Assembly: GCA_002205965.3 (NCBI GenBank)
Contig: NADL03000462.1
Span: 753,001 to 817,000 of the forward strand
Origin: Kappaphycus alvarezii
Taxonomy: Eukaryota > Rhodophyta > Florideophyceae > Gigartinales > Solieriaceae
Length of the DNA stretch: 64,000 nucleotides
Direction: 5' to 3'
The position numbers and the translations under genes were made by a program. Shown piece by piece: positions 16,147 to 56,238 of this stretch. How positions within the stretch are numbered: the stretch's first letter is position 1; each line of letters starts with the position of its first letter. The notes under the pieces are model-generated. The model was given only the letters and a program-made list of their open reading frames with translations, did not search any database and was not told the origin of the DNA.

Positions 16147-16358
16147 ATGTAATAAATAGCATTAATATTATGAGGTAATCCAATGCTAAAAACTGTAAGC
16201 TAAATCAAGATTAATATTGTACAGTACATCATTCGGCGTTCAAATATGACATTTTGGCTTGATATGGAATTAACGATGTCGTGTCCCGACACCGCTCCAG
16301 TTTGTCACCAGAGTGTCGACTTCCAAGCATTTTCACTCCCTCCCCAGACCTTTCACGG
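15300..16358. other. Intergenic region between the G-patch and NSF genes
   Basis: No gene seen. It contains a C12-like homopolymer near 15861-15874, a TACAGTA cluster at 16064-16092 (several overlapping GTACAGT and CTGTACAGT units), the AAT/ATT palindrome described separately, and another TACAGTA copy at 16219-16226 only 130 bp before the NSF start. Confidence 0.6.
16096..16145. repeat. (AAT)n-(ATT)n palindromic microsatellite
   Basis: About seven AAT units run directly into about nine ATT units, with the switch near 16116. The array is therefore self-complementary and can form a cruciform. It lies 214 bp upstream of the NSF start codon. Confidence 0.9.
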
Positions 16359-18617
16359 ATGTCTTCTTGGAACTTTCGAGGTCTCCTGCCTTCCTCCCTG
16401 CATCTCTCCGTTTCCTCGTGCCCATCCAATGACCTTGCTCGCACCAATGCCCTGTTTGTCAATCCCGCTGACTACCCGTCCACAACCGGACATGCCTCCG
16501 TCAAATCTGCGTCTGCTTCCTATATCTACCTCATTCAACAAAGCGAGCTGGTGAAACAAGGCTATCTGGCATTCAACAGAATACAACGAAAGGAACTTCA
16601 TCTTGGCCTTGGTGACAAAGTTTCAGTCACACCTTTCTCATGGCCACAGAAAGCACCACTTTACGCCGTAGCCGCCACGTTCGAAGTTGACCAGGCAAAG
16701 CGAGCAGATCCAATTCAAGTCGATGCTGATCAACTTATCGCTCAATGTCGTCGAAGACTTGATGGACACATTCCGAGTCTAGGGCAGACGTTTGTGGTTG
16801 ATTTTTATGGTAGCTCATTGGTAATCAAGCCAACATCCTTGGTCGCTGATGGCCCGCTTGAATATGCATCTATTGGAGATACAACGGAGTTATATTTCGC
16901 AAAGGCTCCCGGATCAACTGTCAAAGTGAAGGGTGCTGATAACCGTCCAAAGGATGTCTTCAAGGCAGATTTTAACTTTGAGAAGATGGGTATAGGCGGT
17001 TTGGACAAGGAATTTTCCGACATATTTCGGCGTGCATTTGCTTCCCGCGTATTTCCAGTAGATGTCATCAAAAAGCTTGGAATTCAACACGTGAAGGGAA
17101 TGTTGTTGTATGGTCCCCCAGGAACGGGGAAGACATTGATTGCCAGGCAGATTGGTAAGATGCTAAATGGAAAGGAACCAAAGGTTGTAAATGGCCCGGA
17201 GGTTCTAAATAAATTTGTTGGGCAAAGTGAGGAGAACGTTCGCAAATTATTTGAAGATGCGGAGAAGGACTACGCGGAGAACGGCGATTCATCAGAGTTG
17301 CACATCATCATATTCGATGAGATTGATGCAATCTGCAAGCAGAGAGGGATGAGCGGGAGCTCGTCCGGTGTTGGAGATACAGTTGTGAATCAATTACTGT
17401 CCAAAATTGATGGGGTCAACGCGCTGAACAACATTTTGGTTATCGGGATGACTAACCGTAAGGATATGATTGACGAGGCATTGCTTCGACCGGGCAGGTT
17501 GGAGGTTCATGTGGAAATCTCACTACCAGATGAGCACGGACGGCAACAGATTCTCACAATCCATACGGCCAAGATGAAGGAGAACAAGATGATGGGGGAG
17601 GATGTGAACATCGAATCACTTGCAACTCAGACGAAAAACTACTCTGGGGCGGAAATCGAAGGCTTGTGTAAGTCGGCAGCAGCCTTTGCACTAAATCGGC
17701 ACGTGGACTACCGTGATCTGCAAAAGAAGGTAGATGCGTCAGGGATGATGGTCATGATGGATGACTTCAGAAGGGCGTTGAGGGAGGTGCAACCAGCGTT
17801 TGGGATGGGGCGGGATGATTTCGCGCGATGCTTACTTGGAGGATTCCTGATTCATGGGGAGCGAATGCGAAAGTTGCTGGAGGCTGGAAAGATGTTTCGG
17901 GATGAGGTAGCAACGTCAGAGAGATCGCCTTTGGTGTCTGTCTTGATTGAAGGACCAGCAGGAACTGGAAAGACAGCTTTGGCAGCTTTGTTAGCTGTGG
18001 AGTCAGGCTTTCCATTCGTAAGGTTGGTGACCCCAGAGTCATACGTGGGCTATTCAGAGGTTGCAAAGTGTCAGGCGTTGGCAAAGGTCTTCGACGATGC
18101 TCATAAGTCGTCATTATCGGTAATTGTGCTTGACAATATCGAGCGAATGATTGAGTATTCCCCAATCGGCCCTAGGTTCTCCAATATTGTCTTGCAGACA
18201 CTAATGGTGTTAACGAAACAGGTGCCAGCAAAGGGAAGGAGATTATTGATTCTGGGGACAACAAGTTGCGCAGATGTAATGGAGCGGTTAGACTACAGGG
18301 AGGCGTTTTCGGCCGTGCTGAGTACGCGGACGTTAAGTGGGGACGAGATTGAGGCGATTGTGGATGGGAAGGCAGAAGCCAAGAGTATCAGTCAAGAGAT
18401 GGATGGGAGTCTGTCATCCCTGAGTGCTAGTGCAGTAAATGCCATCCAGTTTCGGTCAATGCGAGAAAAGGAACTGGCATTGCAATTGTTGGAAGCGGAA
18501 GGGTTAGGAGTGAAAAAGTTATTGATGATTTTGCATATGGCAAGGACGGAAACAGCGGGTGGGGGGTTCACTCTAGGAATGGAGAGGTTGACGGCAGTAT
18601 TGAAAGATGTTGTGTGA
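16359..18617 (+). CDS. NSF: N-ethylmaleimide-sensitive factor (vesicle-fusing ATPase)
   Basis: Hexameric AAA+ ATPase that, with SNAP adaptors, takes apart SNARE complexes after membrane fusion in the secretory pathway. The first in-frame ATG (16359) gives 752 residues, close to the usual 740. The N domain has CPSNDLARTNALFVNPADY and LSLGDKV-like sequence typical of NSF. The D1 ring has Walker A GPPGTGKT (252-259), Walker B IIIFDEID (Asp320-Glu321) and the sensor/arginine-finger region MTNRKDMIDEALLRPGRLE. The D2 ring has GPAGTGKT (532-539) and VIVLDNIERM, where DN instead of DE is normal for NSF D2, which binds ATP for assembly but hydrolyses little. No intron and no frame damage. The gene is complete. 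Confidence 0.97.
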   Translation: MSSWNFRGLLPSSLHLSVSSCPSNDLARTNALFVNPADYPSTTGHASVKSASASYIYLIQQSELVKQGYLAFNRIQRKELHLGLGDKVSVTPFSWPQKAPLYAVAATFEVDQAKRADPIQVDADQLIAQCRRRLDGHIPSLGQTFVVDFYGSSLVIKPTSLVADGPLEYASIGDTTELYFAKAPGSTVKVKGADNRPKDVFKADFNFEKMGIGGLDKEFSDIFRRAFASRVFPVDVIKKLGIQHVKGMLLYGPPGTGKTLIARQIGKMLNGKEPKVVNGPEVLNKFVGQSEENVRKLFEDAEKDYAENGDSSELHIIIFDEIDAICKQRGMSGSSSGVGDTVVNQLLSKIDGVNALNNILVIGMTNRKDMIDEALLRPGRLEVHVEISLPDEHGRQQILTIHTAKMKENKMMGEDVNIESLATQTKNYSGAEIEGLCKSAAAFALNRHVDYRDLQKKVDASGMMVMMDDFRRALREVQPAFGMGRDDFARCLLGGFLIHGERMRKLLEAGKMFRDEVATSERSPLVSVLIEGPAGTGKTALAALLAVESGFPFVRLVTPESYVGYSEVAKCQALAKVFDDAHKSSLSVIVLDNIERMIEYSPIGPRFSNIVLQTLMVLTKQVPAKGRRLLILGTTSCADVMERLDYREAFSAVLSTRTLSGDEIEAIVDGKAEAKSISQEMDGSLSSLSASAVNAIQFRSMREKELALQLLEAEGLGVKKLLMILHMARTETAGGGFTLGMERLTAVLKDVV

Positions 18618-20522: not shown

Positions 20523-21916
20523 ATGCTGATCGAGAATATTGCTGAGTTTGAGTGGATGGTGGAAGTTATTGACAGTGTTTCGCACATTGTATCCACCATA
20601 CACGACCATAGGATGCTCAAGACTAGATTGGCTGAGTGCGCTGAAAAGTTAAATAGGATGGTGAAAAGAGGGCTAAGAAGGAAGGAAACAGAGTTGCAGC
20701 AGGCTGTTAGTGACCAGGAGAAAGTGATGGAGCTTGAACAAGAGTTGCTCAGAATCAGAGCGCTTCACAGACCTGCGGTAATGGTGGAAAAATTTTCTGA
20801 CACGCGATTTGCCACCGCCGAGCGCGTTTTAAGTTCCTCCCTCAGGGACAGGCCTGCGCTGCTTAAAGTTGTTGAATCAAACGCTGAGGAGCGGACAGAG
20901 TTCGAAGAGAGCTTGTACCGGGGTTCTGTTCACAGGAAACTGGATAGAAAAACAAAATTTATCGATCCGATATTGTCGCAATCGTTCCTGATGGAGGTTA
21001 TGAAGGCGCATGCAGTGTTTAAAGTTTTCAGGCGATACCTGCGGTTCTTCGATTCTGACGATGCTCAGATTTTCAAAGTCCTGCTTTTTACATTGCAGTT
21101 GGAGAAAGACATTCAAAATCTCCCTATTGAACAAGAAAGAAAGTATCATATAATGAGATTATACCTTCGTCGCCGGGATGGACCGGCATCACAGTCCACC
21201 AAAGTGCTGCTACTGCAGGACATACATTGCGTGGCTTACATCTTGGATCCTAATTCTGACCTGTCGAGATCACGAGAAGAAGTTTACAAAGAGAAACTGA
21301 GAAATGAGATAACAAGTTACTGCAAAGTGAAGTACAGTGACGTTCGGCAGCGTTGTCTCAAGGTAGGGAAAATGATGAGCTCTTTCGAGAAAGAACAAAG
21401 CTCTGAGGACATTATTAGGCTGTCAGACCAAAGTGTAGGACTGAAATATTACGTGGGTAAGCCGTTGCAGTATTGGAACTCTTACTCTCGCAGGGCCTAT
21501 GACTTCAGAGAATTCGCGCGACGTGTGTTGTCCTCATCTCCTTCTTCGACAGCCGTGGAGAGAAGCTTCAGCGCTTTTAAGCGGATACATACAAAGCTCC
21601 GAAATCTTCTAAAGAATGAGAAGGCAGCCAAGTTGATATACTGCTATTGGAACTTACGATTAAAACTGTCAGCCGGTTCATCGGATCGCATGATCATGTG
21701 GGACGACGAGGATCCGAACGATCAACTCACCGAGGAATTCAACGATTTTGTCACGACTTACAGCAGCCCTGATGCAAATCGAAAGAGTCAAGAGGAAGTG
21801 TGAATTCTTCTTCTGGTGGGGGAAGTTTTCTCAGCGTAGATGAAAGTGATAGCGACGGAAACATTTCATACGGCATATTCGATGTGTCGGATGATGATGA
21901 CTTTGATCCCGCCTGA
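20523..21916 (+). pseudogene. hAT-family transposase, 5' truncated
   Basis: hAT transposases cut and paste DNA and dimerise through a C-terminal hATC domain. The open frame 20523-21803 (426 codons) begins inside the family's core: the string LIENIAEFEWMVEVIDSV corresponds to the segment after the catalytic Asp region. It ends with the hATC hallmark SSPSSTAVERSFSAFKRIHTKLRN near residues 330-355. The N-terminal BED finger and first catalytic residue are missing because the frame runs back into the end of the Tc1 element at 20.47 kb. The normal acidic tail (SVDESDSDG, DVSDDDDFDPA) is readable in the next frame up to a stop at 21914-21916, so a one-base frameshift near 21780-21800 cuts it off. 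Confidence 0.85.
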
Positions 21917-38779: not shown

Positions 38780-39373
38780 CTACTGCGCTCTCTTTGCGGC
38801 CTTAATATCATCCTCCAGTATATCCTTAATCTCTTCGTAAGCTCTGTCTAAGTCATCATTTACCACCACCTTGTCAAACAATCCAACCTCTTCTATCGCC
38901 TCCATTTCCTTCTTCGCATTGCCCAATCTCGTCAACAACATCTCCTCTGCTTCTGTGCCCCTGCCCCTCAACCTCCTCTCCAACTCCTCCATACTCGGCG
39001 GAGCGATAAACAAATACTTGGCCAACAATTCCTTCTTTCTCGCCGCTCGACACCCCTGCACATCAATGTCCAAGATACAAATCCGCCCCTGCTTCCTCAC
39101 ACTTTCCACAGCAGCGACACTAGTGCCATAATGACGTCCATGAACTTCGGCATGTTCTATAAATTTTCCCGCCGCCACATCAGACAAGATTTGGTCCGCA
39201 GTCGTAAAGTGATAGTGTACACCGTCTTGTTCTCCAGGACGAGGTGCACGAGACGTATGCGAAACTGAGAAGCCGAAGAACTTGGGATATTCCGAGCGCA
39301 ACTTTTCAATCAAGGTTCCCTTCCCGACGCCAGACGGCCCCGCTATCACGACGGCACTGGGTCCGTTTGTCAT
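38780..39373 (-). CDS. GUK1: Guanylate kinase
   Basis: Transfers phosphate from ATP to GMP, giving GDP and ADP, in guanine nucleotide synthesis. A complete 197-residue intronless gene from ATG 39373, the usual length. The P-loop GPSGVGKG occupies residues 12-19. The GMP-binding part follows (SHTSRAPRPGEQDGVHYHF, then KFIEHAEVHGRHYGTS), with the lid GRGTEAEEMLLTRL and the strand ILDIDVQGCR. No clear transit peptide is visible, so cytosol is the likely site. The gene is divergent from the sucrose-phosphatase-like gene across about 0.9 kb that carries an exact GTACAGTACTGTAC palindrome about 470 bp upstream. Confidence 0.96.
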   Translation of the reverse strand: MTNGPSAVVIAGPSGVGKGTLIEKLRSEYPKFFGFSVSHTSRAPRPGEQDGVHYHFTTADQILSDVAAGKFIEHAEVHGRHYGTSVAAVESVRKQGRICILDIDVQGCRAARKKELLAKYLFIAPPSMEELERRLRGRGTEAEEMLLTRLGNAKKEMEAIEEVGLFDKVVVNDDLDRAYEEIKDILEDDIKAAKRAQ

Positions 39374-41023: not shown

Positions 41024-41666
41024 GAAAGGTAAGGTCTTGCTTTTGTTTTCACTTATTGTCTTCCTCTATGATGAGCAACAATTTGAATCTCGTTAATAAG
41101 GATACGTGACCAAATCGGTTGCGATGAACTCAACTCAACCATTTAAGTCTGAGAGGAACTCATAGCAGAGCACCTGGATCAACTGGCACGCAGAGCTTTG
41201 TTTTAACTTTGACGTGTGGTAACTTTATTTGATTGCGGCAACTAACAATGGGTTTTATGTCGGTGGAGATCATCAGGACTGTGTACGGCAGACGTAATTT
41301 TCGCAAGGTACAGTACTGTACATGAATAGTGTGGTACATAACTGTAATGATACAGTGAACCTACAATGCAATTTGGACATGTGTAAACGTGTGTTAACGG
41401 GATTGGCCCAAACATGGCAATTCGAAAAAATAGTCAGGGGCCGCAGAATAGTAGGCAATCTCACAGCGCTCGTAAGACCTGTGCAAACAACGTGTTACTG
41501 AAACTCTATTTGCTTCACCGATCTCACGGCCGCGCCATCGGCTCGTATTTCTGTTGTCCTCCTACCGCGAAACGCACCTTCCCTCTCCGTCAACGAAGTG
41601 CATTCCTCCGACCTCCCTTCTTCCGCTTACTCCCCCCTTTGGCTCGCGTTTTCCTGTGAACAAACA
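41024..41666. other. Intergenic region upstream of the MATE gene
   Basis: No gene seen. Holds an exact GTACAGTACTGTAC palindrome (41308-41321) 346 bp before the MATE start codon. The last 100 bp is pyrimidine-rich on the coding strand, as in the leaders of the neighbouring genes. Confidence 0.6.
41308..41321. promoter_or_regulatory. GTACAGTACTGTAC palindrome
   Basis: Exact 14-bp palindrome in the MATE upstream region, at a distance from the start codon similar to that seen at GUK1 and the HAPSTR1-like gene. Confidence 0.5.
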
Positions 41667-43223
41667 ATGCGCGCCTTCCTTGCCCCCACTACAACACTCC
41701 CATCCCTCCGCCCCTACCACTTGAATACAATACGTCTTTCCCGACCCACCACACATCGCTTTCGAACCCGCCCCTCTAGAGCTTCAGCCCTTGACAATCC
41801 CCCTCCACCTCCTTCGTCTTCCCCTCGCGCCCAAAATCCTCTATCGCCGCCACCACTTTCCACAAAATCACCATCCCCTCTCCTCTCATCCTCCATCGAT
41901 GCCTCCATTGCCCGTATATCCATTCCTGCCCTCGGCACGCTCGCTCTCGATCCCCTCGTTGCCCTCGCAGACATGGCGTGTGTTGGTTACCTCGGCGCGT
42001 CATGCCTCGCAGGTGTTGGTATCGGAAACAACATCTTCAACCTCTCATTCACCTGTTTCAACTTTCTTGGTATGGCCACAACCCCTGCCATCGCACGCGC
42101 CTATGCACGTAACGATCCGGAGGAGGCTTCGCGTCTTATTGCGCAGGCTCTGTGGGTCGCCGCTATGGCCGGCATTACCGCCATGACAGCACTCTCCCTT
42201 TTCACCAAACCTGTCGTCGCCTTTTTCGGTGCAAACGCCGCCATCTTGCCCCAGGCTGTCCCGTATTTGAGGGCTAGGATCCTCGCAGCTCCATTTTTTT
42301 TGGCTGCCATGGTTGGCAATGGTACTTTTCGCGGGTTTCAGGACACCAAGACCCCTTTGTTTGTGGGCTTATTGGCCAATTGCTTGAATTTAATCTTGTA
42401 TCCCACGCTGATATTTGGCTTTAGGATGGGCATTCGGGGTGCTGGTATTGCGATGGCCACTGGACAGATTTGCGCAGGTGCCGCGTTGATAGCGTTGCTC
42501 GTCTCTACAAAGAAGTTGCGTCCAGCCGATTTGACAAAGTTACCCCGACCCGGAGAGATTTTTCCGCTCCTTCGAACGGGAGCCGTGTTGTCTGTACGCA
42601 CCTTGTCTATCTTTTCGACAATTTCGTATGCAACAGCAACAGCGGCACGTATGGGCACCGTCCAAGTGGCCGCCTTTGAGATTGGACGCCAGATTTTTGC
42701 ATTGTTTGCAAAGCTGCTGGATGCCATTTCGGTCGCAGCACAGTCGTTGGTGGCCCTGGCTCTAGGAAAAGGTGACTATGGCTTGGCAAGGAAAACTGCA
42801 AATCGTATTTTGCAGTTGGGTTTAACAATGGGGTGTGGCTTCGTGGGATTGCTCATGTTGATAATGAATCAGGCGCCTGCGTTTTTCACCAGTAATCCTG
42901 CAGTACGAGAGGCAGTGTCGGCCACTTTCCCATATATGGCGCTAGTGCAGCCTATTAATGGGCTGGTATTTGTGTTTGACGGCATTTACACAGCTGGCAG
43001 GCGGTTTACATCGCTCTCAACAGCAATATTCATTGCCGCGTGTTGTGCCAGCTCGTTTTTGTACGTTGTGAGAGTGAAGGCACTGCCGCTGCAGTTTGTT
43101 TGGGTAGGGTTGAATATAATGATGGTCTTGAGGGCATCATTATTGGGCCTTTTGTACTTCACGCGGTGGTCGCCGGTGCCACGGCCACGGCATCAGCCAA
43201 AGGATGTCGGAAATGGTATTTGA
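41667..43223 (+). CDS. MATE-family (DinF-type) transporter, probably plastid
   Basis: Multidrug-and-toxin-extrusion antiporters export organic molecules in exchange for H+ or Na+. The first in-frame ATG (41667) gives 518 residues. Residues 1-75 are Pro/Ser/Arg-rich with almost no acidic residues until Asp, consistent with a plastid transit peptide. Twelve hydrophobic segments follow, starting with ISIPALGTLALDPLVALADMACVGYLGASCLAGVGI, which has the PLVALAD-A-VG-LG signature of the DinF/EDS5 subgroup. Other family strings are NGTFRGFQDTKTPL, GIRGAGIAMATGQ and FDGIYTAGRRF. The substrate cannot be told from sequence; plant relatives in the plastid envelope move phenolic compounds such as salicylate precursors. 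Complete, intronless and undamaged. Confidence 0.9.
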   Translation: MRAFLAPTTTLPSLRPYHLNTIRLSRPTTHRFRTRPSRASALDNPPPPPSSSPRAQNPLSPPPLSTKSPSPLLSSSIDASIARISIPALGTLALDPLVALADMACVGYLGASCLAGVGIGNNIFNLSFTCFNFLGMATTPAIARAYARNDPEEASRLIAQALWVAAMAGITAMTALSLFTKPVVAFFGANAAILPQAVPYLRARILAAPFFLAAMVGNGTFRGFQDTKTPLFVGLLANCLNLILYPTLIFGFRMGIRGAGIAMATGQICAGAALIALLVSTKKLRPADLTKLPRPGEIFPLLRTGAVLSVRTLSIFSTISYATATAARMGTVQVAAFEIGRQIFALFAKLLDAISVAAQSLVALALGKGDYGLARKTANRILQLGLTMGCGFVGLLMLIMNQAPAFFTSNPAVREAVSATFPYMALVQPINGLVFVFDGIYTAGRRFTSLSTAIFIAACCASSFLYVVRVKALPLQFVWVGLNIMMVLRASLLGLLYFTRWSPVPRPRHQPKDVGNGI

Positions 43224-44365: not shown

Positions 44366-44676
44366 TGGTCGTCAAACTATGCCATACGACGGATTACGGA
44401 ATACTCAGGTTTAGAAAGACCCCCGCCGTGACACGGCATGCGAACCAGCAGAGTAGTAGTACTACTGTAACACCCTACAAGCCCCACTGCACGTGACCGA
44501 TGTGGTCCATCCAGTTAGCTCGTAACTGAATAGTCGGTCAGTCGGTGTACACTCAAGATAAGTAAGAAGAGTAAAAGATTCTCTCTACAAGGTAGAATAA
44601 CTGAAAGGCTGCAACATTTGGCCTTCACCATGATTGAAATGGAGCGGCACAATCGTCGATAACCTCGGAAGACTTG

Positions 44677-44782
44677 TAATGCTTGTTATTTCTCTTTTAT
44701 TCCTTCCTGTCCTGTTTAGGCCAAGCGTAACCAACCTCCCTCTGTCATGGGCGCGGCACAGCAGTGCTGTAAGTACTGTACT
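44677..44782 (-). repeat. Shared 106-bp terminal module, inverted copy
   Basis: Inverse match of the module at 56131-56238 and of 49345-49466. The shared text includes GGCCTAAACAGGACAGGAAGG and the tip AACAAGCATTA (here at 44677-44687, read in inverse). It directly precedes the 5' part of the non-LTR element. Confidence 0.85.
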
Positions 44783-45597
44783 ATTGTTGTGCTCTACGCC
44801 GCGGACTCCAACGATCTCCTAAAAATACTCCGGGGGATCCCAAACATTTACGATGGCGCCCGCCTCTCCACCAGCCCGCTTTCCGAACTCATCGCCGAGC
44901 TCCCCACAACCGAGTGGAAAGTTGGCACTTGCGTCGCTGCTGCGCGCGAGGTTGCAAAGCTCAAGACGTGGCCTCCGAAATAACACTGGAAAACAGGAAA
45001 GCCCTGGCGGGAGCAATCACCCGCCTCATTGACGCCGCAGCAGCAACCCTTCCGAGAGGGGATGCTTTTGTTGAAAACTTCATCGCGAAATTCTACGCGG
45101 GGTGCGAAAACCTTGCTCCCCCAAAGACTGTATTGGATACGCAGGACACCCCAGGCGCAGCACCGGAGGCAGACACTCCACCAGCGGCCCACCACTACAA
45201 CAACGACGAGACCCCGGACGGTGGAGTGGAAACACTGGAGACCACCACAGTCCATGAAGAAACCGACAGAGCCACGCCACCGGCGACAAACAAAACTACC
45301 CTGGCCCCCACACCTAAAGAACCCTCACCTGTCAACCTTAGGGTCGCAAAACCCCAGGAAACAGGTGCGGCTCACCAGCTTACGCAACAAAACCGGACGT
45401 CCCTGAAGCCCCCCCCACACACACGGGGAAGACGAACGACGCACGAAACGCACCCGTGCCCTGTCACAACGCATGAAGGAGATGCGGACGGTGAAGGTAC
45501 AACTCGACCAATCCCCCCCACTGGGAAAACGGGCGGGCAAGGCCTCTCGCCATTAGCCCCTCCCTCCTTTCCCACTTCTCCGTATCAATGCCCCTGA
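44747..45597 (+). pseudogene. Non-LTR retrotransposon copy B, first open frame region
   Basis: 44747-44983 and 44914-45597 overlap and read as one protein with a frameshift near 44970: LIAELPTTEWKVGTCVAAAREVAKLK, then ITLENRKALAGAITRLIDAAAATL, then a long Pro/Thr-rich stretch. This is placed where LINE elements carry an ORF1 or the N-terminal part of a single polyprotein. I see no RRM or zinc knuckle, so the function is not shown. It overlaps the start of the next frame by 10 bp. Confidence 0.5.
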
Positions 45598-48594
45598 TGC
45601 CTCCGACGACTTCCTCCGCACCCAACGACCAGTCCACCCCTACCACTCCTCTTCCTTCGGTGTATGATGCACTGCACAGCCCGCTAAGGCCCTCGGACAT
45701 TTTCAACCGCATTCATGGGAACTGCATTCACAGTCTTGCCATATTGCTCATTCGACTCTTTCGATCCGCAGCAAACGCACGGGACGCAAAAGCAGTGCAC
45801 ATTGCCCTCCTCCGGATACATCTTCTCCCGACCGCTGTCTTGCGACGTTTAATCCGTGGGGAAGCCGGATGGCGGTCTCAGACAAGGCAAAGCCAAGGAC
45901 TCCGAGAAAGCATCCGCCGCGCCACCGCAGGCGAATGGAATGAACTTTGGAGAGAAGCCATCCAAGCACACCAGATTAGGGAAGAGCGAACCGTCCGACG
46001 TCGCCCGCAGCAAACCCAGACAGACAACAAGCGAGACCCAAAGTTTCGCCGGGCAGCCCACCTAGCTGCAGATGCACAATACGGGCGTGCGATGCGCACC
46101 TTACATCAGTCGCACATTGCGGACGTGCGGGACCCACACGTTTTGGAACGTCTGTGAGAGTTGCACCCTGCACCGAACTCCCTTGTGACAGCCCTCGACA
46201 CGAGAGACCTCCCGCTCCCGATGGACATCACTGAGGAGGCAGTCCTACACGCCGTCCAACGCTTGAACCCAAACTCCGCGCCGGGTCCGGACAGAATGTC
46301 CCCTCGGCTCCTTCGATTCTTGGCCAACACAACGGTGAGTCCTGAAGCAGGTGTGACGGGCATCTCGGCGCTAACTGCAGTTGTGACAAGACTAGCCCAA
46401 GGGGACTTACCAGACGACACAATCCCTCTGATCTCTTCTGCGACGCTGCTGCTCATCCAACCTCGGCCAGACAAGATTCGCCCCATTGCTATTGGGACGG
46501 CCTTGCGGCGACTCGTAACAAAGGTGCTCCTACGACAAGCAATAGAAGACACGAGGGAGTACCTCGCACCCTTGCAAGTGGCCAATGGCGTGCCCAGCGG
46601 ACTGGACTCCATTGTGCACGAAGCACGGAGACTGGTTGAGCGCCAGGACGAGGAGCGTTCAATGGTCTCCGTGGATGCACACAACGCATTCAATCGGTTC
46701 TCGAGACAGCGCATGATAAATTTGCTGCCGACTAAAGTACCGTCGCTGTGTCGTTTTCTGAACATGGTATACGCCCGCAACACGCCGTCGCTGATATTGC
46801 CCGTAGCGGCCACACATGACATCCCTAGCCAAGAAGGTATGCAACAGGGGGACCCTGCAAGCATGCTGTTGTTTTCTCTTGTTGTGCATCCATTAGCAAC
46901 AGAAATTGCCCAGCAGAAACAGCTTAGTCTACATAGATGGTATGCGGACGACTGCACTCTCATCGGCACTCATACAGAGCTCGAAAAGGCAGTCGACATC
47001 CTCAGCTCCAGAGGACTTGACCATGGCTTATATCTATCACGCAAAAACCCGTCTGTTCTGGCCGCACAGACTCGGTAACTGCACATCGCCACTATTGCAC
47101 CGCTTCCCAGTTGAGAACTTTTCCACCGAAGGCATCGACCTTCTTGGGGCCCCAATCGGGTCGTCACAGTTTATGGAAGATTTTCTGAACGAGAAAATCA
47201 GAAGCTGCAAGCACACATTGTCGCTGACTGACGGTATCGGAGACGCTCGAATTCGGTTCCACCTTCACCGGGTATGTGCATCCGCTTGCAAGCTTCAACA
47301 TGTGGTGAAGCTAACTCCGCCGAGTGTGACCACTGCCACTGCACTGAGATTCTACGACGACCAACTCGAATGTTACGCAAGCTCTAACAACGTGCCGATG
47401 ACTGATGCAGTTCAACAGCAGGTATCCTTACCTCTCCGCTATGGCGGTCACGACTTTACACCTATAGCAACGCTTAATTTCGCAGCATGTGCTGCGAGCA
47501 TAATTGACGCCGAGCTGCTGCGGAGCCCTGATGACAGTGGTGACACTAAACACCGATATGCTGAAGCGGATACACTCCTCCGGGAGTTTGTCCGACGGCT
47601 CCTTGTGTCCGTCACTAATGATGGCAGTCTTCCGGAAACTTTGACAGCGGCAAGCCTCGCAGCCAAGCCCGATAGTACATACAACATTCTGTATCGAGCC
47701 TGGTGCGAGTCTGCAGCAAAGTTCTTCTGGAAGGACGACGAATGGAAGAGGTTGCCAAACCCCATATCGCATTCAGAAGCAGATATTCGGCGAAGAATTC
47801 GACATCATGCATATTTGGAAACGCAGGCAGGGGCCTTCCTCACCGCACACCCCGCTGTAGTCAAACGAACGTCCAACGAGATGTGGACAGTGATGCTACG
47901 CCGTCACCTAGGAGTTCGCGTGTTTGACGACACCGCACCGCTGCAGTACGCTGAGTGCCATAGGCCCATGGACCTCTTAGGGGACTATGCAACAGACCTT
48001 TGTGACAAAGGTCTCGGGTGGACCAACCGGCACACAGCAGTTGTGAGAGTACTTGGGAGAGAGCTGTTTAAGGCAGCAGGAGTTGGCGTCCAATATGAGG
48101 TCAAATACCTACTCCCCGGACTGAATGCGCGACCCGCAGATATTCTGGTGCACCCGCGATCCGACGCATTGAACACACCGCCTCCTCTTCCAGTGGCCTA
48201 CGACATCACCGTATCCTCGCCATTCCAGGAGTGCTATATGTCAATGGGAGCTCGAAAAGCGCGAGCCGTTGCCAACGCAGCAGACAAGCGAAGGAGGAGG
48301 GACCTAGCCACGAAAGTGGCTGCCATTTCTGGCGACATCCTGCCTGGAAGATCAAGATTAGGATGGGATTTTGTGCCGCTGGCTTTTGACTCGTTAAGAT
48401 CACCTTCTGAGACGTCTTCAAAGGTCATAGAGAAATACGCGGCAGCTGTTGCATCGCGCAGCGGATGCTCTACGGGGGGGATGAAGACACGCGTATACCA
48501 GAAACTAAGCGACGCTATTTGGTCCACAAGCGCGGCATCAGTAATATGTCGTGCCCTGCAACACGCAGAAGTTAGTCACCCTATTCAAGAGTGA
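45588..48594 (+). pseudogene. Non-LTR retrotransposon copy B, RT and endonuclease-like region
   Basis: Reverse-transcribes element RNA at a nicked target. From ATG 45588 one frame runs through a TGA at 46155-46157 and on to 47078. RT motifs are in order: LNPNSAPGPDRMSPRLLR, RPIAIGTALRRLVTKVL, MVSVDAHNAFNRFSR (first Asp), MQQGDPASMLLFSLVVHPL and RWYADDCTLIG (YADD, 46936-46968). A one-base surplus in the A5 run at 47043-47047 moves the reading to the frame ending at 48594, which continues KTRLFWP and IDLLGAPIGSS. The far C-terminus has LNARPADILV (about 48123-48152) and VAYDITVSSPF (about 48195-48227), separated as in PD-(D/E)xK restriction-like nucleases. Two lesions only, so this is a young copy. 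Confidence 0.8.
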
Positions 48595-48750
48595 GTTCGT
48601 AGCGACTAAGAGTGTTGCACATATATATTACAGTGATAAAGACAAATACAGTACTGTGCCGTCCTCAGACCCCACCCTTCTCTTGGCATGCAGCGGGGAG
48701 ATACGCCTGGAAACCTCTACAGTAGACGTATCTCCCCAGGGTGCGGCGCT

Positions 48751-48764
48751 GTACAGTACTGTAC
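48751..48764. repeat. GTACAGTACTGTAC palindrome in the left foldback arm
   Basis: Exact copy of the 14-bp palindrome, here within a mobile repeat rather than a gene upstream region. Confidence 0.6.
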
Positions 48765-49023
48765 ATACGATGCCCATTGTGGGGTGGGGTACGTACAGTA
48801 CTGTATTTAACATACAGTAATCTACATACGTACCACACGCCCCACTGCTGAGGGTACGCTGCCGCCCCGGCCGTACCGCACAAATAGAGTGTGCGGCCAA
48901 ATTGTTTCCTTTCCTTCCGACCCTCGCTTCCCTGTTCACGCTGCGCCACCCTCCCCGGAGCCTTCTCCTTCCCACTACGCACGCACCAAATTCGGGGCCT
49001 TCTCCAAATTCGGGGCCTTCTCC

Positions 49024-49466
49024 GTGAGTAGTGGGAAATAAAAGGCTCCGGGGAGGGTGGCGCAGCGTTAACAGGGAAGCGAGGGTCGGAAGGAAAGGAA
49101 ACAATTTGGCCGCACACTCTATTTGTTCGGTACGATCAGGGCGGCAGCGTATAATCAGCGGGGGGTGTCGTACATAGATTACCGTGCGTGTGGTACGTAG
49201 ATCACTGTATGTCAAGTATAGTGCTGTGCGTACCCCACAATGAGCATCGTACAGTACTGTACTGCGCCGCACCCTGAAGAGATACTTCTAGAAGTTTCCA
49301 GGCGTATCTCCCCGCTGCATGTCAAGAGAAGGGTGGGTTTGGAGACACGGCACGGTACAGTACAGTACTATAGCAGTGTGCTGTGCTACGCCCATGATAG
49401 AGGGAGGTAGGTTACGCTTGGCCTAAACAGGACAGGAAGGGATAAAGGAGAAATAAGAAGAATCAC
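49024..49466 (+). repeat. Direct repeat, left copy (right foldback arm plus terminal module)
   Basis: Matches 55876-56238 in the same orientation. Both begin GTGAGTAGTGGGAA and end in the module with GGCCTAAACAGGACAGGAAGG and GAGAAATAA. The left copy has about 75 bp extra between them. The two copies bracket the Ty3/gypsy element and the H3-tail gene. Confidence 0.85.
49249..49262. repeat. GTACAGTACTGTAC palindrome in the right foldback arm
   Basis: Exact copy of the 14-bp palindrome, the counterpart of the one in the left arm. Confidence 0.6.
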
Positions 49467-50390
49467 ATGTTTCTGCGTCCAAGGTTCGCCATGACAGACG
49501 CCAAAAAAAAGCACCCCCACCTATACTTCGATGGATCCCTTTCCTCTGACATCGGACGTTTTCTTTTCGCGTTCGAGAAAGTCGCGATAAGAGGTAAACC
49601 GGACGACGAGAAGGCCCTCCGGGTCCTTTGCCACCTGGAGGGGGCTGTATTTGACGTCTGCTATAGCGCTTTTTCACGCAACGGGTCGTTCACCGAGGAA
49701 GCGAAGAATTATGATGTTGTGAAGAAGAAGCTGCTGGCGGAATTCGGTAAGAAGGTGAGCCCGGAAGAAGTGTTTCAGGAGGCTGTGACCCCTTCAATCA
49801 AGGCTGGAGATATAGGAGGGTCCCTTGCGTGACTTGATGTCCTATACAAGAGTGTCGGCTTTATTGGCACGGCATCATTTGGGTTTCTGCGCAGAGCAGT
49901 GGCGGGGCACCCAAAGTTGGCACATTTAGTCATGTTTTTGACCTCTGCGGACTATAATGGGCTCAAGAATACGATAGAAGACTTTCAGGATTGCAAGAAA
50001 GCTTTTTTCTTCTATCACGGGGAAGCTAGGGCGCCGCCGATAGCCCCAAGGCGGATTCTGCATGGGCCTGACGCTCGTGTAGTGAAGCCGCCTCAGCTGG
50101 AAGAGAAATGGAACCAGCTAGCAGGTCAGTTTGCGGAGCTTTCCCTCTTTGTGAAAAAACAGTTAGAGAAGGCAGGACCGGCGGCAGCTGTTGAAGAAGA
50201 CTATAGTTGCAGTTTATGCGGTCAAAGGGGACATCGTGCCACTCAGTGCCCTCAGAAACCACCCAGGAACACCCGTTGCTCCTTAGAGGCCACTCGGAGG
50301 CAACGTGCTGGTCAAAGGAGCGTCAGAATGAAGGCCGACACGTCGGAATCGCATGGGCAAGTTCGGAGTCGAAGGAGGAACTCTGCATGA
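49467..50390 (+). pseudogene. Ty3/gypsy gag, one in-frame stop
   Basis: Gag builds the retrotransposon particle and packages RNA. From ATG 49467 (or 49491) the frame encodes a capsid-like helical region (SSDIGRFLFAFEKVAIRG, LCHLEGAVFDVCYSAF, KKKLLAEFGKK) to a TGA at 49830-49832. The same frame continues without other stops to 50390 and carries a CCHC zinc knuckle, CSLCGQRGHRATQC, at about 50208-50250. The TGA stands where a Trp is plausible, so it looks like a G-to-A change. A Ty3/gypsy label follows from the pol order downstream. Confidence 0.8.
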
Positions 50391-50735: not shown

Positions 50736-53700
50736 TTGAAGCGTTTGGTCTCCATGACTGTCCCGGTGACTCACGCCTGCACGTCGAATCAGCCCGAGGT
50801 CCCTCGACTGTTGAAGGTTGTAGCCGTGAAGGCTTATTTGACGGAGACACATGCCTTGTTGGACACGGGTGCAGTTCCCAATTTGATGTCTCGGGACTTC
50901 GGCGAGAGGCCGGCACTCGCTCCGACAGCCACTGACCGTCAGATCACCGTCGCCGATGGAACGGCTGCTCAAGTCTTTGGGTGTGTGCAGGAGGTTCCAG
51001 TCTCTTTTTAAACTTTGGTGGTGCCCTTGGGCTTCTTGGTGGTACGAAACGCTCCGTTTGACGCAATCATCCCCAGCGCCACCCTGGAAGCCATGCAGGC
51101 AAAACTGGATTACGGTCGCCAACAAGTTTCTTTTGCAGCAGGGAAGAAGAAGGTCCTCCTGCCCCTTCTCTACGAGCCGCCGGTGGTAGACGGACCTCGC
51201 ACCGATAGCGAGGATTTTTCATCGGCGGAGGAATCTGGGAATGTGCAGTTTGCGCCTTTGTCGCCCTCGAAGTCAGGAGATAGCGACGACGGCTCGGACA
51301 TAGAACAGGAGTTCGTGTTGGTGATCTTGAATGAGGAGCCGTATGAGCCCGATCTTGAAGGCAATGATGCAGAGCTGGACTCCGACATGGAGGATGAGAA
51401 CTAGCCTCTCTGCTGGGCACCAAGGTGAAACCCCTTGAGAAGAAGTACCAAGTATCGTTGGTGAAGGCCTTAAGGGATACCGACGTGATCGCCTGTGATA
51501 TCCACCACCTGAAGCCAGCCATGGTCCCGGTCGTACACTCTTTCGATCTGATTAATGACATCCCGATCCATATGAAGGCTCACCGGATGCCGCCGAAACA
51601 CAACGTTGTCTTCATGGAGGAGGTTGGGGAGTTGCTAGAAGCTGGACTTATTACGCCTTCGAGCTCCGCTTGATCGTTTCCCGTGGCCATAGCGACAAAG
51701 AAGGACGGGAGGCCCAGGTTCTGCGTCGATTACCGACAGTTGAATAGGGTGATGAAGTCAGACCGCTGGCCACCACCGAAGATAGAGGAGCTGTTCGACG
51801 ATCTGTCTGGTTCGAAGGTCTTTACAACTCTGGATCTGTGTACCGGATATTGGCAGGTAAGGATGGCCGAAAGTTGCAAAGAGAAGACCACGTTCGTTTT
51901 TAGGTATGGAACATACAAGTTAGAGGTCATGCCGTTCGGGTTAGTGAACGCGACTGCGACGTTCCAACGAATGATGGACGAAGTTCTCCGAGATCTACCC
52001 TTCTCCATGGTGTATGCAGATGACGTGGTCATCTTCTCCCAGACAATGGAAGAACACGTAGGCCATTTACAGGGGGTGTTCAAAAGGATTCATGAGGCAA
52101 GACTGAAGCTCAAGGTGACAAAGTGCAGTGTCGCGCACTCGGAGGTCAAGTTGCATGGTCACATGATCAACTGGACGGGCATAAAGGTCGACACCGACAA
52201 GATAAGGGATATAGCGGAAGCCCTCGAACCGAGGAATGTAACCGAATTGAGGGGTTGGACTGGCAGGGTACTATCGGCGCTTCATAAGGAACTTTGCAGA
52301 TAGTTCTGCGGTGCTGCACACGGCCACATCAGTTAAGAAGGCTTTCAAGTGGACTCCAGAGATGCAGGAGGCATTCGACTACTTCAAGGAAAAGCTGACT
52401 ACGCCACCAGTGCTATCGTTCCCGGACTTCGACTCCCCTTTCATAGTGGAGACAGACGCGTCTTCGTCTGCACTCGGAGTGGTACTCTCCCAGAAGAAGG
52501 AGGACGGAAAGGTACACCCCATCCAATTCGCGTCAAGGACGATGACGGAACAGGAGCGCCGCTATTCAATGAGCCTGAGGGAGGCTCTCTCTGTCGGGTT
52601 TGCCCTTAAGAAGTTCCGAGTGTATCTCTTGTCTGACAAGACGTTTGTGGTTTATACCGACCATCAGGCCCTGCAGATAGCGTTTAAAAAGAAGGAAATT
52701 CACGGGCGGCTCGCCAGGTGGCTGGATTAAATGGCCGAGTACGATTTCGAGGTGAGTTATCGGCCTGGTGTCGCCAATGCAGCGGCTGATTATCTTTCGC
52801 GCAAGCCTACTGGCGGCCGGAAGCATGGAGAAGACAAGGCGGAGAACTTCTAAGAAGGATTAGTAGCCACAATGTGCTGGGCCGATCCCAAATTCGCGGG
52901 CTTGGAACCCCGGCTACTAAATTTGGCAAGGTTCTTAGCAGGAGAAACGGTAAAATAAACGGACAAGAAGAATAAGACTGCGATAAAGAGTAAGGCGAAG
53001 AAGTTTGTGCTCTGGAACGACACACTGTTTCGGCGGGAGAAGGAGAGGCTACGCGTCGTACCCCCGCTGGGGCAACGCGTCGAGATACTAGCAACATTTC
53101 ACAACAATATAGGACACTGGGATGTTGGATCAACGCAAGAGATTGTCAGGGATCACTCCTGGTGGCCAGGGGTGTACCGCGACATCACGGAATACGTCGC
53201 TTCATGCGATGGCTGTTAACATGCTCGCAGGCCTCCGACCTACCACACAAACCTAAGAGCTCCCGTCACGGGACTCTTCGAAACGTTTTCCATTGACTTT
53301 GCTGGGCCATTCAAGTCGTCGAAAGCTGGGAAGAGATTCGAGTCAATCGCGGTGGAACACATGACTGGTTGGCCGATTGCGTGGGCAACGATGAACTCCA
53401 CTTCGGACATTGTGATCGTCAAAGATGAGATAATATTGCCATTCGGGCCGCCGAAGAGGTTCGTGTCGGACAATGCGACGGCATTTCTGGCCGTGTTGGT
53501 CCAGAGCTTTATGAGTGAACATGGAGTGGAGTGGAAGACCGTTCTCCCTTACGCCTCAATGGCTAAAGGGAGAGCGGAAAGGATGGTAGGCACTATCAAG
53601 CACGCGATCAAAATGTATATTGTTGAGAACGGCGGGGACTGGGCGGAGGTACTCCCGAAAGTGTTGTATGGTTACCGGAGGCGCGACCATTTGACGGCCC

Positions 53701-54098
53701 CCTCTCCCTTCCAAATGCTGTACGGCATCAAGCCAAGGATTTTAGCGAGCGACGCGGTGGCCCTACTGAATGAGGCCAGCGCGACGAATAGAGTCGTGGA
53801 GACCTTGGGGGAATCGCGCCTGCGCGCCGCTGTAAAGGAAAGGTCTAATACTTTACGGGAGCCGAAGGGCCGCGTGAGGAAGTTCGCGGTAGGAGACGAA
53901 GTTCTTGTCGCCAATGGAACGGCTTTCCATAAGACTAAAAAGTGGCCGGCGTTTGAGTCGTTCTTTTACGGGCCGTGCAGAGTAACGAAGGCCATCCGCG
54001 TTACGAGCTGTTATCTTCCACTGGTCGGGCGACACGCAAGGAGATTCACGCTCGGAGGCTGGTCCGATATTACAGAAGGGCAGAAGTTTACTAGGTGA
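50736..54098 (+). pseudogene. Ty3/gypsy protease-RT-RNase H-integrase, decayed
   Basis: Domains in order: aspartic protease (ALLDTGAVPNLMSRDF, about 50857-50905); RT at 51425-52303 in another frame (RPRFCVDYRQLNRV, FTTLDLCTGYWQV, MPFGLVNATATFQ and the active site VYADDVVIF at about 52012-52035); back in the first frame after a shift near 52260, RNase H at 52311-52730 (VETDASSSALG, YTDHQALQIAF); the H2C2 zinc finger (53090-53219) and integrase core at 53230-54098 (FSIDFAGPF, FVSDNATAFLA, KGRAERMVGTIK). In-frame stops at 51008, 51671 (TGA for a likely Trp), 52728 and 53217 break it. RT-before-integrase order defines Ty3/gypsy. No chromodomain is visible at the end. Confidence 0.88.
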
Positions 54099-54368: not shown

Positions 54369-55448
54369 TTATTCCAAAGCTCCGGCGGAGAGTTCTAGGA
54401 CGTGGGACTCGGAAGGGTCTCGGAGGCGTTCCAGTCCGACGTTCACCGCAACACAGTGGTTCATACCGCTCGAACCGGCTAAGGTAGCGATGTATACTCC
54501 CGCAGGAAGGCTAAGAAGGGAGGAAACGGATGTGTTGAGAGGTAAGACCGTCTGCAGGACCAAGTCCCCCAGAGGGAGGTGCTTCTGAGCGTCGCGAAGG
54601 TCACGCACGCCACCACCAGCACAGGGATCCTGCCGATTGGTTACTGCCATAGTGCGAAAGGTCTCGAACCACTTCTGCGCCTGATCTTTATCCCCAAGCT
54701 CGGTCAGACCGTTGGCGATGGATGCGCCGATGCAAACCTCATGACTGTCCGTGAATGGTACGAGACAAGGGGGGAGGAGCAGTTGGGGCCGTGGGGCCGA
54801 CAGAGGCTCCCGAGATCGAGTAGACAACAGAACCAATTTCCTGTTCGGATGGCGTTGACACCAGGAATGGATGTACAGGACTGCTCCAATCCGATCGGAA
54901 TGACCAAGCTCGAACCTATCGGAGTCGACGTTGTGGTGATACTCTTCTTTGTAACCCTCGAAGGCCAGGGTATAGAGGAGAATTATGTGGGTCTCCCCTG
55001 TCTCCTCGTCGGTCGCTCTGTATACCTTGTCCTCATTGCACCAGCAAACGTCCAGTATCGACCACGCACTCTTCGGAACCGACGTATACAAGCAGCGGTC
55101 ATGAGTTGACTCTGTGAGGCCAAGAGAGTACGCGTCGTCAAGCATCATCTCCTGACCGTCAAATGCGCAGACAAAGGGCGCAATCTGGCGACCGAAGAGG
55201 GCGTAGAACTCATCCTCCCTCACGGAAGTCGTGTTTGGCGATATTTCGGAGTACACCCTGAAATGGAACGGAGAGCCTTCACGGAACGAGATCTTGCAGG
55301 TGTCATGGCGTCCAAGTAGGCGGGCAGCAGCCGGGCGAGTGACCTGGGACGCGGTAAGTGGGGAGATCCGTGCCGCTTTCGCGACCAGCTGACCGCGAGG
55401 GGCCGCACCTCCTGTGCTCTTGGCGGCCGTCTGTCGTGTTCGTGCCAT
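54369..55448 (-). CDS. Histone H3-tail mimic fused to a protease-like domain
   Basis: ATG 55448 opens an undamaged 359-codon frame. Residues 2-29 align without gaps to H3 residues 1-28 with 21 identities: ARTRQTAAKSTGGAAPRGQL is the first part. Kept are K9, S10, T11, K23, R2, R17, R26 and S28; changed are K4R, R8A, K14A, K18G, A21V, T22A and K27I. The histone fold is absent. Residues 50-225 match nothing I know. Residues 230-359 resemble a papain-like or C39-like peptidase core: EVCIGASIANGLTELGD (Cys239), GMNHCVAVNV (His331) and RLRDPSES (Asp344), in the right order. The gene is convergent with the Ty3/gypsy pol (270 bp apart) and its upstream side enters the shared direct repeat. Its intact frame beside decayed pol suggests selection or recent arrival. 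H3 tail resemblance is certain; roles are inference. Confidence 0.85.
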   Translation of the reverse strand: MARTRQTAAKSTGGAAPRGQLVAKAARISPLTASQVTRPAAARLLGRHDTCKISFREGSPFHFRVYSEISPNTTSVREDEFYALFGRQIAPFVCAFDGQEMMLDDAYSLGLTESTHDRCLYTSVPKSAWSILDVCWCNEDKVYRATDEETGETHIILLYTLAFEGYKEEYHHNVDSDRFELGHSDRIGAVLYIHSWCQRHPNRKLVLLSTRSREPLSAPRPQLLLPPCLVPFTDSHEVCIGASIANGLTELGDKDQAQKWFETFRTMAVTNRQDPCAGGGVRDLRDAQKHLPLGDLVLQTVLPLNTSVSSLLSLPAGVYIATLAGSSGMNHCVAVNVGLERLRDPSESHVLELSAGALE

Positions 55449-55875
55449 CTGGCAGAGGTAGATCGCGGTGCTCTGCGGGTCAGTGAGGAAAGCTGAAGAT
55501 GAAAGGGAAAACAGGGGGAGTAGGGAGGGAGCGAGACGGAACAAAAGAAGAAGGAAGAGAAAAGAGAGGGGGGTCTAGGGTTGGGGATGAGGTTCGCGAG
55601 AAGAAAGCAAAGGCGGAAAGGAAGAACGGAGATCGCAAGGCCACGCTTCTTACCCCTCAGGCGACTTTACCCAGCCCTTGCGTAAGTGACTTCGCCCCTC
55701 GCCGTCGTCTCGCGCGCTCCCGCGAGTATACTGTCAGTCTTATTGCACCGCGGAACGTCTCAGCGTTCTCTTGCTCGCCGACGGGGAAGGACTCGGACAC
55801 AAACGCAAGGGAAAGGAGAAGGCTCCGGAGTTGGTGAGTGCAGTGGTGGGGAGGAGAAGCCCCCAGAGTTGGTAC
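55449..55875. other. Upstream region of the H3-tail gene
   Basis: A long purine tract on the plus strand (55496-55572), which is a pyrimidine-rich leader for the minus-strand gene. It could equally be the polypurine tract of the neighbouring Ty3/gypsy element, but no LTR start pairs with it. 55640-55875 contains GGAGAAGGCTCCGGAG-type units also found in the repeat that follows. Confidence 0.4.
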
Positions 55876-56238
55876 GTGAGTAGTGGGAAGGAGAAGGCTC
55901 CGGAGAGGGTGGCGCAGCGTGAACAGGGAAGCGAGGGTCTGAAGGAAAGGAAACAATTTGGCCGCTCACTGTATTTGTGCGATACTGCCGGGGGGCGTAT
56001 GATACATAGATTACTGTATGTCAAGTATAGTACTGTACAGCGCCGCACCCTGGGGGAGATACGTCTAGAGGTTTCCAGCCGTATCTCCCCAGTGCATGCC
56101 AAGAGAAGGGTGGGGTTTGAGGCACGGCAAATTACAGTACTTATACCACTGTGCTGTGCTGCGCCCATGATAGAGGGAGGTAGGTTACGCTTGGCCTAAA
56201 CAGGACAGGAAGGAATAAAGGAGAAATAACAAGCATTA
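55876..56238 (+). repeat. Direct repeat, right copy
   Basis: Same-orientation partner of 49024-49466, ending in the terminal module (56131-56238) with tip AACAAGCATTA. It includes a TACAGT cluster at 56029-56041. It lies about 430 bp upstream of the H3-tail gene start and may supply its promoter. Confidence 0.85.

What the first reader, a model, noticed from the sequence alone, without database searches (positions are those of the whole stretch)
54369..55448. A protein with a histone H3 tail but no histone fold, inside a transposon block
The sequence directly shows residues 2-29 aligning gap-free with H3 residues 1-28 at 21 of 28 positions, followed by about 330 residues unrelated to histones. 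Such length and identity cannot be chance. I know of no described family of H3-tail mimics encoded in or beside an LTR retrotransposon. Proposed role (inference): a decoy or anchor for readers, writers or erasers of the H3 N-terminus, letting an element avoid or exploit chromatin silencing.
Basis: partly seen in the sequence, partly recalled or inferred. Interest (0 to 1): 0.95.

Follow-up and report, generated by a model that had tools for sequence, protein, structure and literature searches.

The report
Retrotransposon-encoded histone H3 tail mimic
A family of jumping genes in red seaweeds carries, on its antisense strand, a protein that begins with an almost complete copy of the histone H3 tail but lacks a lysine that the silencing machinery marks, so it may be a decoy that jams the machinery that keeps jumping genes quiet.

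Summary
Window 54369-55448 (minus strand) encodes 359 aa whose residues 2-29 match H3 1-28 at 21 of 28 positions without gaps; no histone fold was found. It lies antisense between the integrase and the 3' LTR of a decayed Ty3/gypsy element. It is no isolated fusion: the host genome gave 119 matching pieces (a capped search), Chondrus crispus has homologues with the same tail, and six subfamilies keep the tail as their most conserved 29-column stretch. In 42 of 42 fetched loci with a detectable integrase the ORF lies downstream of it on the opposite strand. dN/dS is 0.23-0.46 in the four larger subfamilies.

The telling pattern: in 79 copies with a readable tail the H3K27 equivalent is never lysine (V37, M14, I12, F5, other 11), while K23-A-A-R26 is mostly kept; R8 and K9 never occur together; neither ARKS motif survives. 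Met or Ile at position 27 is reported to turn the H3 tail into a PRC2 inhibitor, and the host has a clear E(z). Best explanation: an element-encoded, oncohistone-like pseudo-substrate of H3 methyltransferases, used against silencing. Family and constraint are shown; the mechanism is inferred (about 0.45). Expression and binding are untested.

The parts
54369..55448 (-). H3-tail protein ORF (359 aa plus stop), antisense to the element
   Evidence: 119 matching pieces in own genome; Chondrus homologues
55362..55448 (-). Histone H3 tail mimic: Met plus the equivalent of H3 1-28
   Evidence: 21 of 28 identical, next best in window 10; PDB H3.3 E 5.9e-6
55365..55367 (-). Codon at the H3K27 position, Ile in this copy (AARIS; host H3 has AARKS)
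54372..54761 (-). C-terminal part with conserved Cys239, His331, Asp344, an order seen in papain-like enzymes (fold not established; likeness recalled)
   Evidence: C 45/49, D 46/50, H 40/50; no Pfam match, PDB matches shown are all to the tail
49023..49460 (+). Left LTR, alignable part
   Evidence: direct repeats with the right LTR
55875..56233 (+). Right LTR, alignable part; the ORF starts about 430 bases inside it and reads away from it
   Evidence: three aligned blocks of 88-91% identity to the left LTR
49899..50390 (+). gag-like frame with CCHC zinc knuckle
   Evidence: PF00098 E 6.6e-4, 20.1 bits, just under the cut-off 20.8
51683..52303 (+). Reverse transcriptase frame
   Evidence: PF00078 E 2.7e-31
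53352..54098 (+). Integrase frame, just upstream (in element sense) of the antisense ORF
   Evidence: PF00665 E 1e-5, 26.2 bits, under the cut-off 32.6; relatives beside the ORF in 42 of 50 loci

Best explanation
A lineage of Ty3/gypsy LTR retrotransposons in a red alga (the protein also in Chondrus) encodes, antisense between integrase and 3' LTR, an accessory protein made of an H3-like N-terminus (A1 to S28) on a conserved body of unknown fold. SHOWN: the architecture, its many copies, its link to the integrase, protein-level constraint, and loss of both methylatable silencing motifs (K27 replaced in every readable copy, mostly by V/M/I/F; K9 replaced, mostly by L, or stripped of R8). INFERRED: after removal of Met the tail enters H3-tail enzymes as a substrate look-alike, the hydrophobic residue at 27 occupies the lysine channel of E(z) as in H3K27M/I oncohistones and EZHIP, the ARTxQ end adds affinity, and PRC2 (perhaps also a K9 methyltransferase) is blocked, so that the element escapes H3K27me3 silencing. 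Transcription would start in or near the 3' LTR.
For: Of 90 copies, 79 have a readable tail: K27 equivalent Lys 0 of 79; V37 M14 I12 F5 T3 A3 G1 N1, stop or unread 3; R8 with K9 0 of 79; ARKS at 7-10 0 of 79, at 25-28 0 of 79. Without the filter: Lys 0 of 90, R8 with K9 0 of 90. Kept: K23 74, P16 72, T11 72, A24 71, A25 71, Q5 70, R26 66 of 79. Position 27 ranks 22nd of 28 in within-subfamily identity but 4th of 28 when V/I/L/M/F count as one class. The tail is the most conserved 29-column window between subfamilies: 0.518 vs at most 0.499 in 307 others, rest mean 0.346; the same with the 50 longer loci only (0.516 vs 0.499) and with 46 near-full copies (0.523 vs 0.496). Within-subfamily dN/dS tail/body: A .32/.37, B .23/.32, C .38/.46, D .33/.35. 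Seven of 7 foreign homologues with a tail have F or V at 27 (P0002-P0006, P0008, P0009). The host genome has an E(z): preSET_CXC over cut-off, EZH2 E 6.5e-59. Met or Ile at H3 27, or at the matching EZHIP site, lowers H3K27me2/3; Lys or Arg does not (PMC6513997, passages). E(z) knockout in the red alga C. merolae switches on TEs (Hisanaga 2023 as cited in PMC13353863, passage).
Against: No transcript, protein, binding or enzyme data. The commonest residue at 27 is Val, not Met or Ile; the passages I saw give no test of K27V or K27F. Subfamily F has Thr (2 of 2). R26 is missing in 13 of 79 and S28 in 55 of 79. In the host E(z) the residue aligned to one cage tyrosine of EZH2 (Y641, number and role recalled) is Val, so human K27M data may not carry over. 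Subfamily E shows weak constraint (dN/dS 0.82 tail, 0.64 body; 7 copies), F too few sites. K27 could have been lost once, early; several changes among V, I, M and F need one base only, so the class test is not free of bias. 125 of 150 listed integrase relatives have no listed H3-tail ORF downstream, so elements may do without it; but only 113 of 968 ORF candidates were scored, and the downstream regions could not be fetched.
Confidence: 0.45

Rival explanations
1. Docking tail: the H3-like N-terminus binds H3 readers, erasers or chaperones (PHD fingers, LSD1-type demethylases, RbAp48; recalled) to bring the body to chromatin or to titrate those proteins; loss of K9 and K27 only avoids being marked.
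For: A1, T3 and Q5 kept in 59, 59 and 70 of 79; Lys at K4 in 44 of 79 (all in B-E), Arg in 16 of 24 of A and 2 of 2 of F; start Met in 60 of 79.
Against: Does not explain why position 27 stays hydrophobic (4th of 28 by class) or why K23-A-A-R26 is kept.
Confidence: 0.25
2. Nuclear import signal: the tail is used as the H3 NLS for a Kap123-type importin.
For: K23 is among the most conserved residues of the protein (81/86); H3 K14 and K23 are the Kap123 contacts (PMC5677370, passages).
Against: The K14 equivalent is Lys in 17 of 79 and T/M/A/S in 23 of 24 of subfamily A, although B, D and E mostly have Arg there. An NLS does not need ARTxQ, STGG or a hydrophobic residue at 27.
Confidence: 0.1
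3. Self-substrate or lure: the body is a papain-like cysteine protease and the H3 tail is its propeptide, or directs it to H3-tail clipping or to H3-bound factors.
For: Cys239, His331 and Asp344 kept in 45/49, 40/50 and 46/50 copies; the aligned letters are also C, H and D in Chondrus P0003-P0005.
Against: No Pfam match; the PDB matches shown (60 of 144) are all to the tail; AlphaFold model too poor to use (mean pLDDT 36.9). The papain likeness is recalled, from no call.
Confidence: 0.12
4. Host-gene capture without function: a chance fusion with an H3 exon carried along passively, or a mis-assembly.
For: Most listed pieces contain stops.
Against: Tail in six subfamilies and in Chondrus; dN/dS well under 1 in the four larger subfamilies; codon use diverged from host H3.
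Confidence: 0.03

Closest known systems
H3K27M / H3K27I oncohistones
   Same: H3 tail with Lys27 replaced by Met or Ile beside A24-A25-R26; the window copy reads AARIS
   Different: Oncohistones keep the histone fold and sit in nucleosomes; here no histone fold was found and the gene belongs to a transposon
EZHIP (CXORF67), K27M-like peptide inhibitor of PRC2
   Same: Non-histone protein whose Met (or Ile) mimics H3K27M at the EZH2 active site (PMC6513997, passages)
   Different: EZHIP resembles H3 around K27 only and is a mammalian host gene (partly recalled); here the tail is copied from residue 1 to 28 by retrotransposons
Antisense ORFs of plant Retand elements (TRP28)
   Same: Conserved antisense ORF between pol and 3' LTR of a Ty3/gypsy element (PMC11963269, abstract and outline)
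   Different: No Pfam domain found here; carries an H3 tail; red algae, not flowering plants
Viral short histone mimics such as influenza NS1 (recalled)
   Same: A selfish element imitates the H3 N-terminus
   Different: Those copy a few residues (recalled); here 28 residues are copied, from the N-terminus on

Membership tests
Histone H3 | H3 N-terminal tail | tested here: met
   21 of 28 in the window copy; profile of 13 relatives vs PDB H3 E 4.1e-12, positions 1-39
Histone H3 | Histone fold after the tail | tested here: not met
   No Pfam histone match in any of 13 members; best PDB stretches end at residue 35-41 (60 rows shown of each)
Ty3/gypsy LTR retrotransposon (the carrier) | Paired LTRs, CCHC gag, RT and integrase in that order | tested here: met
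   LTR blocks 88-91%; RVT_1 above, zinc knuckle and rve below curated cut-offs; gypsy order RT before INT; frames broken in the window copy. No RT tree was made
K27M-like PRC2 inhibitors (EZHIP class) | Met or Ile in place of Lys27 in an H3-like context | tested here: inconclusive
   Met or Ile in 26 of 79 copies, the window's included; Val or Phe in 42 of 79; Lys 0 of 79: met in part of the family
K27M-like PRC2 inhibitors (EZHIP class) | Binds and inhibits PRC2 | not testable with these tools
   Needs biochemistry; only the presence of E(z) in the host was shown
Retand-type antisense ORF | Antisense ORF between pol and 3' LTR | tested here: met
   Window; downstream of and opposite to the integrase in 42 of 42 loci (LTRs not checked there)
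Retand-type antisense ORF | TRP28 domain | tested here: inconclusive
   No Pfam family over its cut-off; I did not check whether Pfam holds TRP28
Papain-like cysteine protease | Catalytic Cys-His-Asp in a papain-like core | tested here: inconclusive
   Three residues conserved in that order; fold unresolved

The most novel reading that the evidence does not exclude
Retrotransposons have independently evolved the oncohistone trick: a free-standing H3 tail, fused to a body seen so far only in this family, whose K27 (and K9) positions were turned into methyltransferase traps, so that selfish DNA disarms Polycomb silencing in red algae. This would be a first class of transposon-encoded oncohistone mimics.
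Probability: 0.4. Interest if true: 0.97.

Novelty: new variant of a known kind. Interest (0 to 1): 0.88.

Why it matters
Histone mimicry was known to me from viruses (short motifs, recalled) and from a mammalian PRC2 inhibitor. A transposon-borne family with a whole H3 tail, under constraint and lacking both ARKS silencing motifs in every readable copy, would be evidence of an arms race between transposons and Polycomb in a lineage where PRC2 is reported to silence transposons. It gives a natural mutational scan of the H3 tail (dozens of copies, at least two genera) that tells which residues such a mimic needs, and it makes the question 'do elements fight Polycomb?' testable with short peptides.

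Tried and rejected
Chance or mis-assembly: rejected. Recent capture of a host H3 exon: rejected on codon divergence. Known domain in the body: no Pfam family over its cut-off; PDB matches shown are to the tail only. Structure: one AlphaFold job on 7 sequences gave mean pLDDT 36.9, so I ran no fold search. Relatives in viral contigs: 35 stretches matched a pattern, none confirmed; phage records: no match. RNA families at gathering score and tRNAs in the window: none. The genome-contig scan did not run, the alignment being too diverse, and I did not repeat it. Searches for a K9 methyltransferase (PF05033), for SET domains (PF00856) and with a second subfamily's ORF did not complete. Whether the 45-65% identical integrases carry a divergent ORF is open. 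No held paper seen describes a transposon-encoded H3 tail; this rests on titles and starts of abstracts in the listings (20 of 43 listed; 4; 4; 7; no paper), in an open-access library only. One search (Kappaphycus genome) found no paper.

Rows dropped: 11 of 90 copies with under 11 of 28 tail identities (L008, L017, L019, L029, L031, L040, L041, L042, L069, L089, L094) were left out of the tail counts; unfiltered counts are. The script kept only the last ORF piece per integrase: its one same-strand case (C75, 3825 bases) also has an opposite-strand piece 433 bases downstream, by the coordinates. L041 was put in subfamily C by its tail but groups with B in the tree. The 40 short loci L059-L098 were chosen because the ORF's N-terminal part was expected there; one search repeats the window test without them.

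Full report
What is there. The ORF at 54369-55448 is on the minus strand and encodes 359 aa. Residues 2-29 match H3 1-28 at 21 of 28 positions without gaps; the next best in six frames of the window is 10 of 28. The PDB match is to H3.3, residues 1-41, E 5.9e-6. No Pfam family matches.

Where it sits. LTR-like direct repeats (49023-49460 and 55875-56233, three blocks of 88-91% identity) enclose a gag-like frame with a CCHC knuckle, RT and integrase on the plus strand. The H3-tail ORF lies antisense between integrase and right LTR. This copy is old: its gag-pol reading is broken into several frames, while the H3-tail frame is open.

The family. The window lies in a genome of 336,021,096 bases in 884 contigs. 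I take it for Kappaphycus alvarezii from its size (recalled, not tested). A search with the protein gave 119 matching pieces at roughly 100 places, 113 of 968 candidates being scored, so this is a lower bound. Near-full-length relatives run from 75% down to about 32% identity. In 50 fetched loci the window's integrase finds a relative in 42; in those 42 the H3-tail ORF is on the opposite strand and downstream of the integrase. From the other side, 25 of 150 listed integrases have a listed ORF piece within 4 kb downstream. The script gave 24 on the opposite strand at 277-1199 bases and one on the same strand at 3825, but the latter integrase also has an opposite-strand piece at 433 bases (coordinates). 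By integrase identity: 8 of 9 at 70% or more, 8 of 27 at 60-69, 5 of 47 at 55-59, 2 of 26 at 50-54, 2 of 41 below 50. Integrase and ORF-body distances correlate over 41 loci (r 0.588, 0 of 999 permutations as high), so the ORF has travelled with the element.

Other species. Protein searches found four Chondrus crispus proteins (P0003-P0005, P0009) and four unnamed ENA ones (P0002, P0006-P0008), 30-39% identical to the window protein; seven of the eight carry the tail (P0007 starts later; P0008 has one inserted residue). The tree puts P0003-P0005 and P0002 in one clade (100/100) apart from the 49 copies of this genome used, on a branch of 1.05 changes per column (midpoint root). Whether the Chondrus genes lie in LTR elements was not testable here.

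Selection. Subfamilies A-F were named by tail probes; the tree of 49 copies supports them, apart from L041 and with F represented by one long branch. Between subfamilies the tail is the best conserved 29-column stretch (0.518; best of 307 others 0.499; mean of the rest 0.346), and the next 15 columns are the worst (0.10). As the tail columns rest on more copies than the body, I repeated this with the 50 longer loci (0.516 vs 0.499) and with 46 near-full copies (0.523 vs 0.496). The margin over the best body window is small. Within subfamilies dN/dS for tail and body is .32/.37 (A).23/.32 (B).38/.46 (C).33/.35 (D); E is .82/.64 with 7 copies, F has too few sites. Most listed pieces carry stops, so these values mix selected and decaying phases, and the tail is not more constrained than the body by much on this measure. 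K23 (81/86) is among the most conserved residues. Host H3 genes have the ordinary tail; at shared residues the window copy uses another codon at 14 of 21 vs L051 or L052, so this is no recent H3 capture.

The pattern that matters. In 79 of 90 copies with a readable tail the K27 equivalent is V 37, M 14, I 12, F 5, T 3, A 3, G 1, N 1, stop or unread 3, Lys 0; unfiltered, Lys 0 of 90; in the separate codon map, Lys 0 of 87. Subfamily C has Met in 14 of 15, A has Ile or Val in 20 of 24, B, D and E mostly Val. K9 is Lys in 23 of 79, each time with R8 replaced; R8 with K9 occurs in 0 of 79; ARKS occurs at neither site. The flanks K23-A24-A25-R26 stay (74, 71, 71, 66 of 79). Position 27 changes often within subfamilies (22nd of 28 by identity) but stays in the V/I/L/M/F class (4th of 28). 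Seven of 7 foreign homologues with a tail have F or V there. K4 is Lys in 44 of 79, Arg in 16 of 24 of A and 2 of 2 of F.

Mechanism. Met or Ile at H3K27, or at the matching EZHIP site, lowers H3K27me2/3, Lys or Arg does not (PMC6513997, passages). The host has an E(z): preSET_CXC over the cut-off, and an 892-aa frame matches EZH2 at E 6.5e-59. H3K27me3 lies on repeats in the red alga C. merolae (PMC5405695, passages), and E(z) knockout there turns on TEs (Hisanaga 2023 as cited in PMC13353863, passage). The simplest reading is an anti-silencing pseudo-substrate. That RbAp48/p55 in PRC2 binds the H3 N-terminus is recalled and would explain why ARTxQ is kept. Limits: I saw no test of Val or Phe forms as inhibitors; the host E(z) has Val where EZH2 has one cage Tyr (number recalled); there are no expression data.

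Body. Conserved Cys239, His331 and Asp344 (45/49, 40/50, 46/50), also C, H and D in the alignment of Chondrus P0003-P0005, suggest a papain-like domain, but no database match and a poor model leave this open.

Known parts. Antisense ORFs between pol and 3' LTR are known in plant Retand elements (PMC11963269, abstract and outline). Histone mimicry and K27M-like inhibition are known. A transposon-borne whole H3 tail did not appear in my paper searches (listings; open-access library only).

Noticed in passing
44670-49005: Pieces of the same LTR in inverted orientation (44670-44763, 48663-48719, 48841-49005) surround a frame with reverse transcriptase at 46161-47078 (RVT_1 E 1.6e-14), by eye a non-LTR element inserted in an LTR.
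   Followed up: partly
20523-21803 +: hAT transposase C-terminal dimerisation region (PF05699 E 1.9e-7) in a 426-aa frame.
   Followed up: partly
1569-2234 +: Another integrase zinc-binding frame (PF17921 E 2.2e-10); the frame at 568-1167 looks RT-like by eye but was not scanned.
   Followed up: partly
16281-18617 +, 38780-39373 -, 41598-43223 +: By Pfam an AAA ATPase (CDC48_N-like start under its cut-off), a guanylate kinase and a MatE transporter, probably host genes.
   Followed up: partly
L099 298-2973 -: Host E(z): the residue aligned to one EZH2 cage tyrosine is Val; possibly relevant to which residue at 27 fits the channel.
   Followed up: no
L041 and L016: ORF pieces on both strands within a few kb, possibly nested or neighbouring insertions.
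   Followed up: no
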